Positions 2,127-9,519 of a stretch of 38,070 bases of DNA are shown here, piece by piece; positions within the stretch are counted from its first letter, which is position 1; the number at the start of each line of letters is the position of its first letter. This DNA comes from Bacteroidota bacterium (lineage in GTDB: Bacteria > Bacteroidota > Ignavibacteria > UBA10030 > BY39): contig JAUXOG010000104.1 of the NCBI GenBank assembly GCA_030682385.1, forward strand, positions 88,023-126,092, in the 5' to 3' direction. Under the pieces are notes generated by a model that did not search any database, was not told the DNA's origin, and was given only the letters and a program-made list of their open reading frames with translations. A program made the position numbers and the translations under genes.

Positions 2127-3434
2127 CTACTCTGCTTTTATTTTTAAAATTGATTTTACTTTTTCAGCTTGTTGAATTGCAGCTTCTAAATTATTATTTA
2201 AAATATTTACATGCCCCATCTTTCGAAACGGTGAAGTAGTTTCTTTTCCATAAAAATGAAACGACAGTCCCGGAATGCTTAACGCTTCGTTCAATCCTTC
2301 GATAACAGGTTTACCTTTGTAATCTTCATCGCCGAGTAAATTTAGCATAACTGCCGGCGATAATAAATCGGTTGAACCGAGAGGCAAGCCGGTAATCGCC
2401 CTGATGTGTTGTTCGAACTGGCAGGTAGCGCACGCTTCAATGGTGTAGTGCCCTGAGTTGTGCGGACGCGGTGCTATTTCGTTCACATAAATTTTTTCCC
2501 CGGCGAGAAACATTTCTACTCCAAATATCCCGACACCGTCGAGCGCCTCGACCGACTTCACTGCAATCTGTGTCGCTTTTTCGGCAAGATGTTTCTCAAT
2601 ACGTGCGGGTGCTATTACAAGGTCGCATATATTTGCACGGCTATCGAAAATCATTTCCACGACAGGATAAGTTTTTATTTCTCCCGATGTGCTGCGTGCT
2701 ACCATAATTGCTAACTCTTTATCGAAATTTATCAACTCCTCAACCATCGATTCAGTCTGAATAGCATTTTGCAGGTCGGATTTACTTTTCATAACTACTA
2801 CACCTCGGCCGTCGTATCCACCTTTGCGGGCTTTATGAACGAACGGGAATTTCATCAGTGACAGAGTTTCCGGAGATTCAACATTTTGAAATTCCGGAAC
2901 GGGAATTCCGTTTTCAGAGAGAACTTTTTTCTGCAGTAGTTTGTCTTGTATTATTTCTAACAGATATGGGGAGGGGAAAATTTTATGTCCGGTATCGGAA
3001 AGTGTTTTTAATGTTCCGGTATCTATATGCTCGATGTCGAATGTGGTTACATCACTGAGTGTAACGAGTTGAGTTATTTTTTTTTTGTCGTAGAAACTCC
3101 CAACAATTATCTCGTCAGCAAGTGTAGCTGCGGGACATTTTGAAGAAGGGTCTAAAACGGAGATATGAAAACCCATTTTCTTGGCTTTTTGAGCCATCAT
3201 TTTTCCAAGCTGCCCGCCGCCAATAATTCCGATTTTCATTAAAGGATATTTACTCTTGACAGATTCATCTATATTTTTGACTGCTTCACCGATGATTTCT
3301 AATCTTCTCACAACCGCATCTTGGACTTGACGATTAGAATAAAAATCCTCTTCTGCAAGTGCTCCAGTATATTCTTCTATCGCAAGGATACTTTCCCAGA
3401 TATCCTGTAAGTAGAGTTTTACATCCCTCTTCAT
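2127..3434 (-). CDS. purK: PurK (N5-CAIR synthetase) with an in-frame truncated HepT N-terminus
   Basis: The open frame is 435 aa, about 65 longer than a normal PurK. Residues 66-435 are an ordinary PurK: ATP-grasp enzyme joining AIR and bicarbonate with ATP to form N5-CAIR. The PurK part begins at Met66 (codon at 3237-3239) with the typical MKIGIIGGGQLGKMM and continues through the ATP-grasp region (KARKGGYDGRGVVV, VNEIAPRPHNSGHYT). Residues 1-65 are the start of a HepT (DUF86) toxin and belong to another family. Two readings fit: translation from Met66 giving normal PurK (upstream Shine-Dalgarno weak), or a real HepT'-PurK fusion started at 3434, coupled by an ATGA overlap to mntA. The sequence cannot decide. 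purE follows directly. Confidence 0.93.
   Translation of the reverse strand: MKRDVKLYLQDIWESILAIEEYTGALAEEDFYSNRQVQDAVVRRLEIIGEAVKNIDESVKSKYPLMKIGIIGGGQLGKMMAQKAKKMGFHISVLDPSSKCPAATLADEIIVGSFYDKKKITQLVTLSDVTTFDIEHIDTGTLKTLSDTGHKIFPSPYLLEIIQDKLLQKKVLSENGIPVPEFQNVESPETLSLMKFPFVHKARKGGYDGRGVVVMKSKSDLQNAIQTESMVEELINFDKELAIMVARSTSGEIKTYPVVEMIFDSRANICDLVIAPARIEKHLAEKATQIAVKSVEALDGVGIFGVEMFLAGEKIYVNEIAPRPHNSGHYTIEACATCQFEQHIRAITGLPLGSTDLLSPAVMLNLLGDEDYKGKPVIEGLNEALSIPGLSFHFYGKETTSPFRKMGHVNILNNNLEAAIQQAEKVKSILKIKAE
3240..3434 (-). pseudogene. Truncated HepT toxin (DUF86), C-terminal half missing
   Basis: Residues MKRDVKLYLQDIWESILAIE ... VVRRLEIIGEAVKNIDESVK match the N-terminal helices of HepT/DUF86 HEPN ribonucleases, which are normally ~110-115 aa. 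The frame loses HepT similarity after KYP and joins PurK in frame. The missing half is where the family carries its RX4HXY active site, also the tyrosine that MntA AMPylates; no such motif is present. So the toxin must be inactive as an RNase. It overlaps the mntA stop by 4 bp, the normal MntA-HepT gene arrangement. Confidence 0.8.
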
Positions 3435-6546: not shown

Positions 6547-6870
6547 TTATAATTGCTCTATAATTTCTTTGACTTGTGATTTCTCATATAATAAAATTTT
6601 TTCTGAGTCAATAAATGGGCGGATATACTTTGAGACACTGTTGCTAGTTAGAAGATCTACTTTTCGTTTTAACAAATCTTCTAATTCCAATTGCATTCTT
6701 ATAAACCCTAGTCCAATCGGTTGCGAGTAATCAAGTTCAACCAAAATATCAATATCACTTTGTTCATCATCTTCATTTCTAGATGCAGAACCAAACAAAT
6801 ATGCCCTTTTGACAGGTTTGTTTTTGAAGAATGCAACAAGTATTTCATAGAATTCTTTACTCACATTCAA
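6547..6870 (-). CDS. Lone MntA-like nucleotidyltransferase
   Basis: Up to 107 aa. The GSx10DxD motif is intact: G27-S28 then D39 and D41 (FGSASRNEDDEQSDIDILVE). It is the same family as the gene at 3431-3718 but clearly divergent. Starts are non-ATG: TTG at 6870 or, as likely, GTG at 6864. No HepT/HEPN partner exists on either side, so it is an orphan antitoxin-type gene; it may have lost its partner when the cassette cluster formed next to it. Members act by AMPylating HepT-type toxins; here the target is unknown. Confidence 0.8.
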   Translation of the reverse strand: MNVSKEFYEILVAFFKNKPVKRAYLFGSASRNEDDEQSDIDILVELDYSQPIGLGFIRMQLELEDLLKRKVDLLTSNSVSKYIRPFIDSEKILLYEKSQVKEIIEQL

Positions 6871-6993
6871 AACCTATTACAAGATAAATCAATACCCTTT
6901 AAAAAACAATCTCTACGAGTCAAAGCCTCGTCAAAGTCGTTGGCCAAAAATCCATCCGTCAGCCGGCGGACTCCATTTATCCACTACTCCAAA

Positions 6994-7042
6994 CTCTCTG
7001 CTCATCGCTCTACGCTCTATGCTCTAAGCTCAATACTCTTCA
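6994..7042. repeat. Heptanucleotide tandem repeat (CTCTAYG type)
   Basis: Seven consecutive 7-bp units: CTCTCTG CTCATCG, CTCTACG CTCTATG, CTCTAAG CTCAATA CTCTTCA. The last unit overlaps the stop codon of bshB1. Degenerate 7-mer arrays of this kind resemble the STRR repeats described in cyanobacteria. Confidence 0.6.
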
Positions 7043-7768
7043 CCCTTTCATTATTTTCAAATCAAACAAATCATTTACTCCAAATGGTTTAGCTGAAAAC
7101 ATGGGGTCGCCGTATTTAACTCCAATCATCTGACCATAAAATTTTGCACGGGTGTCGATGAATTCCAAAAATGATTTTTTACTTAAAAGCGTTTCAGGGT
7201 CTTTCGATTGCGGATTATAAAATTGCGATTTGTATGCTCGCACAGCTTTCTGCCTTACATCATAAACATCACTGATATCAACAATGAAAGAGGGAATGAA
7301 TTCATACTTCATCATATAATTGAAATAATGATACGGACGCCACGGCTTTTGATTAATTCCATCGAACGTAGTTTTAATGTTCACAAGTCCGGAGTAAAAC
7401 CAGGCGTGTTGTGATAAATGATGAGCATGCGAATGGTCGGGATGCCGGTCGTGCCAATGCGGCGATAGTAATATTTTGGGCTTGTATTTTCTGATAACTC
7501 GGATGAGTTTGATTTGATTTTCTTTATTTAACTCAATGTTCCCATCTGGTAAATGCAGATTTTCTCTTGCCGAAAGTCCGAGAATTTTTGATGCAGTCTC
7601 TGCTTCCTTTGCCCGTATATCACGTGAGCCGCGTGTGCCTAATTCGCCCTCTGTCAAATCTAATATTCCGACTTTGTAACCGAGTTTTACTAATTTTGCT
7701 ACAGTTCCGGCACAACCAAGTTCAACATCATCCGGGTGAGCACCGATTGCTAATACATCGAGTTCCAT
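7040..7768 (-). CDS. bshB1: N-acetyl-alpha-D-glucosaminyl L-malate deacetylase BshB1
   Basis: LmbE/PIG-L-type zinc deacetylase, second step of bacillithiol synthesis: it removes the acetyl group from GlcNAc-malate. 242 aa, the normal size. The N-terminal metal motif AHPDDVELGCAG (His11, Asp14) and the later HWHDRHPDHSHAHHL histidines are intact, and the tail KYGDPMFSAKPFGVNDLFD is typical of BshB1 rather than other LmbE proteins. ATG at 7768 leads straight into the conserved LDVLAIGAHPDD. No other bacillithiol gene (bshA, bshC) is in the window. It stands alone between repeat-rich gaps; its stop codon lies within a heptamer repeat. Confidence 0.93.
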   Translation of the reverse strand: MELDVLAIGAHPDDVELGCAGTVAKLVKLGYKVGILDLTEGELGTRGSRDIRAKEAETASKILGLSARENLHLPDGNIELNKENQIKLIRVIRKYKPKILLSPHWHDRHPDHSHAHHLSQHAWFYSGLVNIKTTFDGINQKPWRPYHYFNYMMKYEFIPSFIVDISDVYDVRQKAVRAYKSQFYNPQSKDPETLLSKKSFLEFIDTRAKFYGQMIGVKYGDPMFSAKPFGVNDLFDLKIMKG

Positions 7769-8307
7769 TCTATCTCCATTTTTTTGTTTAATATAGTAAT
7801 TGATTTTTTATGATTCAAGCATTGCGGTAAGTAGTAAGTAGTATGTAGAAAGTAGAAGTGAGAATTGGAGAATTGGTGAAGAAGGTGAATTCATCTGCTC
7901 CGCCAGAGTTCGACTCCGCCTTTGGTGAATCGACTCGTCGAGCGGATTCGGCGTTTGGGTGTTGACCTTGTCGAAACACCCTTCCCGAACCAAGTCAGAT
8001 TCCTGTTCTCCCCATTGCAGCAACCAATAGTTAATGGTCAATGGTTAATAGTTAATAGTCAATTGTCAATTAGCAATTCTCCTACGCCACTTTGTGGCTT
8101 CAGCGGACAAGTCGGTGGACAGGTATAGAATAAAGAAAAATGAATAATGAATAATGAATAATGAATAGCATATATTGAATAACGAATGATCTTCAAAATC
8201 CTAAACTTGTGGTGAGCGCAGTCGAACCATCTCAAATCATTAATCCGAAATCCGAAATCATAAATTGGAACGTTTGTTTCTAAAAGCCATTCTCTCTATA
8301 TTTCATT
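7769..8307. repeat. Intergenic region with four different heptamer tandem repeats
   Basis: No credible gene in these 539 bp. Four heptamer arrays are visible: GTAAGTA-type (7827-7868), RGTYAAT-type with seven units (8029-8077), four perfect AATGAAT units (8139-8166), and AATCCGA-type with five units (8235-8269). Between them are pieces of non-repeating sequence. The promoter of xseA must lie here, but I see no clear one. Confidence 0.65.
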
Positions 8308-9519
8308 ATGCAAAATGAAAAAATTTTAACAGTATTCGAACTTACTCGCCGAATTAAAAGCGTTTTAGAAACTGATTTTAGTGCTGTGGTTGTAACCGGT
8401 GAAATTTCAAACTTGAAACGCCACACTTCAGGCCACATCTACTTTACCATTAAGGATGAGAAGGCTTCGCTATCCGCTACAATCTGGCGCAGCAGAGCAG
8501 CATATCTTACTTTTACACCGCAGGACGGGATGAAAGTAATTGCCCGCGGTTCGATAACGGTTTATGAAGTCCATGGCAAATATCAACTCGATGTTGTAAG
8601 TTTGAAACCGCTTGGAATCGGAGAACTGCAAATCGCTTTTGAAAAGCTAAAACAAAAACTTGACGCCGAAGGTTTGTTCGACCCAAAGCATAAAAAAAAT
8701 CTACCCGAATATCCTGAACGAATCGGCATAGTAACTTCGCCAACAGGTGCAGCTATTCAGGATATTCTAAACATTATTTCTCGCCGCTTTCCATCTGTTG
8801 AAATTATTCTTTATCCCGTAAAAGTTCAAGGAGCAGGTGCGGCTGAAGAAATCGCTGAGGCAATTTCCGACTTAAATAAATTCGGAAAAGTGGATGTATT
8901 GATAGTTGGCAGAGGAGGGGGATCAATTGAAGACTTATGGGCTTTTAATGAAGAAGTTGTGGCTCGTGCCATATACGCTTCTAAAATTCCGGTCGTAAGC
9001 GCAGTCGGGCACGAAATCGATTTTACAATTGCCGACTTTGTTTCCGATTTGCGGGCTCCTACTCCATCAGCAGCGGCTGAACTTGTAGTCCACAACCGTT
9101 ACGAACTGATTGATAATATTAGAAATTTTCTTTATACTATGCAACAAAGTTTGCTTAGTAAGGTTGACGACAATCGATCGCATGTAGCTGGTTTAGTCTC
9201 AAGTTACGCCTTCAACAATCCGATCGATAAAGTCCGTCAGTTTTCTCAAAGAATTGATGAGTTAGAAAGATTATTAAATATTAGTTTTATTCATAAATTC
9301 AAATCGACCAAACAATACAATGCAGGATTATCAGACCGGATGAATTCGCTGAATCCTGAAAATGTTATAAAGCGTGGTTATGCAATAGTTTATAAGAATT
9401 CTCACATCGTAGATTCAAGCCGTAACCTTGCATTAGCTGATGATATCAATATAAAATTTAAAGACGGCAACGTAGATGCCGCAATAACTAAAACATATTC
9501 ATTAAAGAATGAAAACTAA
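8308..9519 (+). CDS. xseA: Exodeoxyribonuclease VII large subunit
   Basis: With XseB it forms exonuclease VII, which degrades single-stranded DNA from both ends to short oligonucleotides. 403 aa, near the usual 400-450. Residues ~8-100 are the OB-fold (LKRHTSGHIYFTIKDEKA, then ATIWR), and ~125-390 the catalytic domain with GIVTSPTGAAIQDI, the glycine loop VGRGGGSIEDLWAFN and SAVGHEIDFTIADFVSDLRA-PTPSAAAE. xseB overlaps its end by 11 bp. No good ribosome site before the ATG. First gene of a long plus-strand run, behind a repeat-filled gap. Confidence 0.96.
   Translation: MQNEKILTVFELTRRIKSVLETDFSAVVVTGEISNLKRHTSGHIYFTIKDEKASLSATIWRSRAAYLTFTPQDGMKVIARGSITVYEVHGKYQLDVVSLKPLGIGELQIAFEKLKQKLDAEGLFDPKHKKNLPEYPERIGIVTSPTGAAIQDILNIISRRFPSVEIILYPVKVQGAGAAEEIAEAISDLNKFGKVDVLIVGRGGGSIEDLWAFNEEVVARAIYASKIPVVSAVGHEIDFTIADFVSDLRAPTPSAAAELVVHNRYELIDNIRNFLYTMQQSLLSKVDDNRSHVAGLVSSYAFNNPIDKVRQFSQRIDELERLLNISFIHKFKSTKQYNAGLSDRMNSLNPENVIKRGYAIVYKNSHIVDSSRNLALADDINIKFKDGNVDAAITKTYSLKNEN

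What the first reader, a model, noticed from the sequence alone, without database searches (positions are those of the whole stretch)
6994..8269. Five different heptanucleotide repeat arrays around bshB1
CTCTAYG, GTAAGTA, RGTYAAT, AATGAAT and AATCCGA arrays, all with a 7-bp period and 4-7 units, lie on both sides of one gene and one even overlaps its stop codon. Units differ between arrays but the period is constant, which points to a common generating process, like the STRR repeats of cyanobacteria. I know of no such description in this group.
Basis: seen in the sequence. Interest (0 to 1): 0.5.

Follow-up and report, generated by a model that had tools for sequence, protein, structure and literature searches.

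The report
Seven-letter DNA repeats in Ignavibacteria
This bacterium and several relatives carry many short DNA stretches built of seven-letter units, each stretch with its own unit, lying between genes and also inside genes at the same spots in different species; such repeats are known in other bacteria, but this many-word, gene-tolerated form is unusual and unexplained.

Summary
The arrays are real and the 7-bp period is a genome-wide property. In 753 kb of the own genome I found 28 period-7 arrays, against 8 of period 8, 5 of period 21 and 0-3 for each other period from 3 to 20. Four of the five arrays pass my threshold; the AATCCGA one is weaker. (1) They are not confined to spacers. The same valyl-tRNA synthetase loop carries an in-frame array in 7 of 25 genomes, each with its own word, with equal loop length in the five genomes of the window's family. 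T9SS sorting domains have a recurrent slot too. (2) Some arrays keep only the pitch and a core: GAGCNNN arrays occur in 14 of 98 order genomes, one being the array at the bshB1 stop. (3) Turnover is fast: the sister species has a much shorter bshB1-xseA spacer lacking most of these arrays. Best mechanism: misaligned copying held by the core, which is inferred. Tests for a general 7-nt mutation signature were negative.

The parts
6993..7041 (-). GAGCNNN heptad array at the 3' end of bshB1 (plus-strand units ACTCTCT GCTCATC GCTCTAC GCTCTAT GCTCTAA GCTCAAT ACTCTTC); last unit overlaps the stop codon
   Evidence: read; TRF 7006-7031; exact GAGCNNN x5 match on the minus strand at C40:95022-95053 = window 7000-7031
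7040..7768 (-). bshB1, bacillithiol biosynthesis deacetylase
   Evidence: TIGR04001, 294 bits over cut-off 182.5
7827..7857 (.). GTAAGTA heptad array (AGTA core), 4-5 units
   Evidence: a degenerate form stands at this place in the sister genome
7860..7880 (.). 8-bp array GAGAATTG, 2.6 units
   Evidence: degenerate counterpart read in the sister genome
8026..8078 (.). RGTYAAT array passing into CAATTGT/CAATTAG, about 7 units
   Evidence: absent in the sister genome
8127..8167 (.). AATGAAT (GAATNNT) array, about 6 units
   Evidence: only a short degenerate trace in the sister genome
8235..8262 (.). AATCNNN array with two exact AATCCGA units, 4 units in all; below my threshold
8308..9519 (+). 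xseA, exodeoxyribonuclease VII large subunit, right border of the array-bearing spacer
   Evidence: TIGR00237, 492.8 bits

Best explanation
The five arrays belong to a genome-wide population of heptanucleotide arrays of the STRR/LSSR kind, held by a patchy set of Ignavibacteria. Shown: the 7-nt pitch is constant; the words differ between places and between species; a number of arrays keep a 4-5-nt core (GAGC, AGTA, GAAT, AATC, AATTG) while the other 2-3 positions vary; orthologous arrays differ between sister species by 7 or 14 nt or by the whole word; arrays sit in spacers and also in frame in tolerant protein positions. Inferred: the arrays arise and are remodelled by misaligned copying during replication, the nascent strand re-annealing through its core one heptad away. 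A core that mutates stops taking part, so cores stay and spacers drift. In genes only changes that keep the frame survive. I take the arrays to be mostly neutral passengers (not tested); no regulatory role for bshB1 is needed.
For: Period spectrum: own 753 kb p7=28, p8=8, p21=5, other periods 3-20 0-3; sister 1.2 Mb p7=24, p8=5, others from 3 to 21 0-6 (p21=6, p12=5). Same 4-mer at constant pitch for 5 or more units in 1.95 Mb, pitches 5-12: p7=31, p8=5, p12=1, others 0, Markov 0. Orthologous arrays that differ by exactly one unit (L190:15166 against L167:12853, 7 nt) and by 14 nt (L330:16220 against L057). ValRS loop: own (TATCGAA), sister (TTTCGGA) and G003 (ATTCGAA) arrays with equal loop length and, by reading, the same register, so the word changed in several units together. 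Patchy by genome: 0 arrays in 54 kb each of G001, G002, G005, G007 against 9 in 40 kb of G006.
Against: No sign of offset-7 templated substitution over 21,598 substitutions in 249 kb of aligned own/sister DNA (lag 7: 0.5145; lags 5, 8, 10: 0.5165, 0.5179, 0.5114). 7-nt indels are rare (one found, itself in an array). In GAGCNNN arrays neighbouring units are no more alike than distant ones (lag 1: 38 of 257, shuffled 36.9; 55 listed arrays of 14 genomes, a capped listing), and for other words lag 1 is no higher than shuffled either (47 of 130, shuffled 45.4); single-unit slippage does not predict this. On arrays picked by score rather than by core, invariant columns were not in excess (50 of 84, expected 48.2, P=0.28, 12 arrays; 9 arrays of other genomes likewise, P=0.70). 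A GAGC core found in five families of the order needs more than local slippage.
Confidence: 0.42

Rival explanations
1. Recognition arrays: the 4-nt core at exact 7-nt pitch is a tandem site for a sequence-specific factor (an oligomeric RNA- or ssDNA-binding protein, or a Y1 tyrosine transposase), and the spacers are free.
For: GAGCNNN x5: 14 of 98 order genomes match, in five families; own genome 41 overlapping matches against 0 for the reversed pattern; the reversed control is non-zero in 6 genomes (1-8 matches each). One array, chosen because its core is constant: 19 units with 1 core and 33 spacer departures; of 200,000 random placements none had fewer than 7 in its best four columns. Spacer position 1 is never C in 93 own units. 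Y1_Tnp (PF01797) counts separate seven array-bearing genomes (4-11) from four with no array in 54 kb (0-2).
Against: Several different cores coexist in one genome. Arrays occur on both strands and inside core enzymes. No link with GC-rich hairpins in spacers (2 of 13 array spacers, 28 of 255 overall). The Y1 link is one of four families tried, on 11 related genomes, with G008 (one array, no Y1 hit) and G009 (one array, 2 hits) left out and 12 others too little sampled. G014, G023 and G024 have 7-13 Y1 hits and no GAGCNNN match. G007, counted as clean, has two TAACTGA places.
Confidence: 0.22
2. Copy-in: ready-made arrays spread between places by short ectopic recombination or template switching, overwriting sequence of equal length.
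For: Sorting-domain slot: 9 of 83 domains with lag-7 identity of 0.55 or more, 0.49 expected from column-wise codon shuffles. Slot identity among the 12 domains with lag-7 of 0.5 or more is 0.70 with flanks 0.66 and 0.59, against 0.45 with flanks 0.63 and 0.53 among own domains below 0.4. Word sharing above shuffles. Equal loop length in ValRS of the window's family.
Against: The same slot holds different words in different genomes. Word sharing partly comes from orthologous arrays counted on both sides. I did not find, nor systematically seek, donor-acceptor pairs with matching edges.
Confidence: 0.17
3. Cis-regulatory elements of mRNAs, as proposed for TAACTGA repeats of marine Beggiatoaceae.
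For: A number of arrays lie close to gene ends, and the proposal exists for a heptamer (PMC4679880, sections read).
Against: Neighbouring genes stand in varied orientations and distances (read, not tested statistically). The RGTYAAT and AATCCGA arrays of the bshB1-xseA spacer are absent in the sister species and the others degenerate. Own TAACTGA x3 occurs at one place, in reverse orientation within a gene.
Confidence: 0.07
4. Chance or AT-rich low complexity.
For: Most words are AT-rich.
Against: Markov controls give 0-2 arrays per period where period 7 gives 28; one period-7 array in 100 simulated windows.
Confidence: 0.01

Closest known systems
Long simple sequence repeats (LSSR) of prokaryotes, heptanucleotide class (Mrazek et al. 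2007, known here through PMC4679880 and PMC4692102; the paper itself was not held)
   Same: Heptanucleotide repeats the most abundant class in most genomes; polymerase slippage is the proposed cause.
   Different: Here some arrays keep only a core, several words share one spacer, and arrays recur in frame at the same protein positions.
STRR sequences of cyanobacteria (recalled; a passage of PMC4692102 mentions three tandem heptanucleotides in Calothrix)
   Same: Tandem heptamers dispersed over a genome.
   Different: The STRR words were not compared; no cyanobacterial genome was searched here.
TAACTGA direct repeats of Beggiatoaceae, cyanobacteria and five Bacteroidetes (PMC4679880; abstract and sections 3, 8, 10, 15 read)
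   Same: Heptamer arrays between genes, mixed with other heptamers in some Bacteroidetes; reverse repeats found in ORFs.
   Different: There one word dominates, mostly upstream of starts, and the in-ORF repeats are mostly peripheral. Here TAACTGA is one minor word, lying in a sorting domain.
GGGNATC / GGGGAYT repeats of Xanthomonas and Nostoc (PMC4692102, passages read)
   Same: Heptad with conserved core and variable positions; length and sequence vary between close species.
   Different: G-rich and quadruplex-forming; of 52 own and sister arrays 5 hold a GGG/CCC tract and none more than two.
Rickettsia palindromic elements (recalled; search listing only)
   Same: Repeats tolerated in frame inside protein genes.
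   Different: Palindromic insertion elements; ours are tandem heptads.

Membership tests
LSSR, heptanucleotide class | Tandem arrays longer than chance, with 7-nt units the commonest | tested here: met
LSSR, heptanucleotide class | Enriched in intergenic DNA | tested here: met
   18 of 28 own arrays outside ORFs of 90 aa or more, in sequence that is 8.7% outside such ORFs; 10 of 28 inside, one of them an artefact of a spurious ORF
STRR of cyanobacteria | Heptanucleotide units dispersed at many places of one genome | tested here: met
STRR of cyanobacteria | The STRR1-3 words themselves | not tested
TAACTGA repeats | TAACTGA as the dominant repeated word | tested here: not met
   own genome has 2 overlapping matches at one place
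TAACTGA repeats | Forward orientation just upstream of start codons | tested here: not met
   the own copy lies in reverse orientation inside a T9SS sorting domain
GGGNATC quadruplex repeats | G-tracts able to form quadruplexes (four tracts) | tested here: not met
   5 of 52 own and sister arrays hold a GGG/CCC tract, at most two per array
Phase-variation repeats | Copy number switches expression within a strain | not testable with these tools
   one genome per species; no reads
REP/RAYT elements | GC-rich palindrome next to the repeat | tested here: not met
   no association with GC-rich hairpins beyond spacer length

The most novel reading that the evidence does not exclude
A lineage-wide array system in which a tetranucleotide core at exact 7-nt pitch (best case GAGCNNN, 19 units in one own array) is what is recognised or copied, with free spacers. 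It is tied to a sequence-specific activity (possibly Y1 tyrosine transposases), and it repeatedly overwrites the same loops of core enzymes and the sorting-domain strand, in the window's family without changing the ValRS loop's length.
Probability: 0.14. Interest if true: 0.85.

Novelty: new variant of a known kind. Interest (0 to 1): 0.56.

Why it matters
Why seven is the favoured length of bacterial repeat units rests on a brief suggestion from 2007 about polymerase slippage (as reported in PMC4679880 and PMC4692102). Arrays that share a pitch but not a word, in some cases keep only a core, and reappear at the same enzyme loop with different words give natural replicates to test slippage, recognition and copy-in against each other. 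They also show a mutational input that writes heptad-coded peptides into essential proteins.

Tried and rejected
Offset-7 templated substitution as a general mutation bias: negative. A 7-nt indel class in aligned DNA: too few indels and no excess. Column heterogeneity on score-selected arrays: not significant. A 21-bp (three-unit) copying step: a first count that left out 12 of the 55 listed arrays suggested it for GAGC arrays (16 of 110, shuffled 8.1). With all 55 it is weak (30 of 147, shuffled 23.2, P 0.03 among six lags), and other words do not show it (26 of 62, shuffled 23.7); not claimed. A lexicon shared with other Bacteroidota: 80 named loci held 15 period-7 arrays; no identical word (mirror control 1), one-letter neighbours 23 against 15 mirrored. 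Link to GC hairpins: none. DinB (PF00817), RecJ (TIGR00644) and MutS (TIGR01070) as genome correlates: no pattern by eye. Assembly artefact: unlikely, since arrays recur in other genomes' assemblies.

Full report
What was checked. The window holds heptad arrays on both sides of bshB1. The genome is an Ignavibacteria-like one: the nearest named bshB1 relatives are Ignavibacteriae MAGs, at 66% and 62% identity. The window is contig C40:88023-126092 of a 3.38-Mb, 140-contig assembly.

Genome-wide bias. In 40 stretches of the own genome (753 kb) arrays of period 7 number 28, period 8 number 8, period 21 number 5, every other period from 3 to 20 0-3; simulated sequence 0-2. The sister species (G004, same genus, 1.2 Mb) has 24 of period 7, 5 of period 8, and 0-6 of every other period from 3 to 21, period 21 having 6 (no simulated control for that full set). 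Runs of one tetranucleotide at constant pitch, five or more units, pitches 5 to 12: pitch 7 = 31, pitch 8 = 5, pitch 12 = 1, others 0, control 0. In 80 named Bacteroidota loci (1.39 Mb) period 7 also leads: 15, next 6. Most contigs were taken because the pattern search had named them, so densities may be high; the comparison between periods is less affected.

Sister comparison. Of 28 own arrays 13 have both flanks in the sister sample, and of 24 sister arrays 7 have both flanks in the own sample; only part of each genome was held. The bshB1-xseA spacer is about 245 nt shorter in the sister: the RGTYAAT and AATCCGA arrays are missing, GTAAGTA is degenerate, and AATGAAT is a short trace. One pair differs by exactly 7 nt and one by 14 nt; two coding arrays have equal length; several spacers are replaced wholesale.

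Arrays inside genes. 10 of the 28 own arrays overlap ORFs of 90 aa or more. One of these is the bshB1 3' array itself, counted only because of a spurious ORF, and one is half inside. Well-supported cases are valyl-tRNA synthetase, a phosphoglucosamine-mutase-like enzyme and three T9SS sorting domains (one tested with TIGR04183, the others by motif and). In ValRS the same loop carries arrays in 7 of 25 genomes: TATCGAA (own), TTTCGGA (sister), ATTCGAA (G003), CGCACAT (G020), GTTTCCA and AACAGGA (G010), AAACCNC (G011), GTTACGA and CAACTCG (G006). Mean lag-7 identity in the loop is 0.359 against 0.247 in control blocks of the gene; lag 14 is 0.313 against 0.258, lag 6 0.308 against 0.271, the others nearer control. 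In the window's family the loop is 75 nt in all five genomes, with arrays in three. The three arrays share their register, so an ancestral array that changed word in several units together is likelier than three arrivals (sequences). Elsewhere in the order array-bearing loops are 87, 96, 99 and 117 nt long against 60-114 without arrays, so net gain may also occur. The mutase-like loop carries arrays in 4 of the 23 genomes that yielded loop sequence. Further in-frame cases are a second ValRS loop (G006, G011), one IleRS loop with different words (G010, G011), the N-terminus of NadD in G006 and, by motif, a sorting domain in G006.

Sorting domains. The own genome has 147 matches to TIGR04183. 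In 83 domains found by motif in own and sister DNA, the 39 nt after YPNPFNP (T-x-I-x-Y-x-L-P) have lag-7 identity of 0.55 or more in 9, against 0.49 expected from column-wise codon shuffles. No other lag from 2 to 14 shows this, except 14 (10 domains). Two words, CAATTAT (TIINYQL) and CAGTTAT (TVISYQL), fill the slot, in most of them at the usual length (L042 has a longer loop after it). CAGTTAT is the reverse complement of TAACTGA in another register.

Core and spacer. GAGCNNNGAGCNNNGAGCNNNGAGCNNNGAGC matches 14 of 98 order genomes; own 41 times (overlapping), reversed pattern 0 times in own. The reversed control is non-zero in six genomes (1-8 matches each). The sister genome has none. In one own array, picked for its constant core, 19 units show 1 departure in the four core columns and 33 in the three spacer columns. 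The array at the bshB1 stop is one of these matches. Neighbouring spacers are no more alike than distant ones (55 listed arrays). This does not look like a decaying perfect repeat: either the core is needed for copying, or it is recognised. Against a general rule, arrays picked by score show no excess of invariant columns, and some arrays are nearly perfect.

Distribution. Arrays are patchy: none in 54 kb each of G001, G002, G005, G007; 9 in 40 kb of G006, 8 in 54 kb of G010, 5 in 44 kb of G011, 2 in 39 kb of G003, one each in 54 kb of G008 and G009. These counts include loci fetched because of ValRS and the mutase; 13 other genomes are known from only 10-14 kb each. TAACTGA x3 with at most one mismatch occurs in 15 of 247 Bacteroidota genomes, its reversed form in 4. 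Y1_Tnp gene counts follow array presence in the 11 genomes I classified. This is exploratory: one of four families tried, related genomes, G008 and G009 left out, and G014, G023, G024 have many Y1 hits but no GAGCNNN match.

Mechanism. I favour misaligned copying held by the core. The shown steps are pitch, core in part of the arrays, unit-length differences and word turnover; the copying step is inferred. The negative tests keep the confidence below one half and leave recognition and copy-in open.

Literature. Searches. Read: sections of PMC4679880, passages of PMC4692102 and PMC4060949. In-ORF heptamers are described in PMC4679880 as mostly peripheral; I found in these searches no account of recurrent arrays at one internal enzyme loop. 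STRR details are recalled.

Noticed in passing
window 2127-3434 (minus): The purK frame carries a HepT-like stretch at residues 14-59 (PF01934, 35.1 bits) ahead of the ATP-grasp domain: possibly a HepT remnant joined in frame to purK.
   Followed up: no
window 6547-6870 (minus): MntA-like nucleotidyltransferase about 120 nt from the first array (Polbeta 55.4 bits; NCBIfam MntA 55.1 bits, below its cut-off of 60).
   Followed up: no
L330:11939-12000 region (sister, mutase-like loop): A GC-rich palindrome TCCCGCCGATGGCGGGA stands beside the heptad array in the sister's enzyme loop.
   Followed up: partly
own genome C101:29630-29762 (L055:9630-9762): A 19-unit GAGCNNN array with a nearly invariant core and varied spacers almost free of C (1 of 57 letters).
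   Followed up: yes
L340:3032-3192 (G006): An AGTT-type heptad run overlaps the end of one gene (stop at 3058) and a 17-unit AACTCGC-type array begins 10 nt into the next gene, NadD, whose N-terminus reads as LATRNSQ-like repeats.
   Followed up: partly
L050:9456-9541: An 8-bp array (CACTACTC-like) of about 11 units; period 8 is the second commonest period in the own sample.
   Followed up: no
whole own genome: 147 matches to the T9SS sorting domain TIGR04183.
   Followed up: partly
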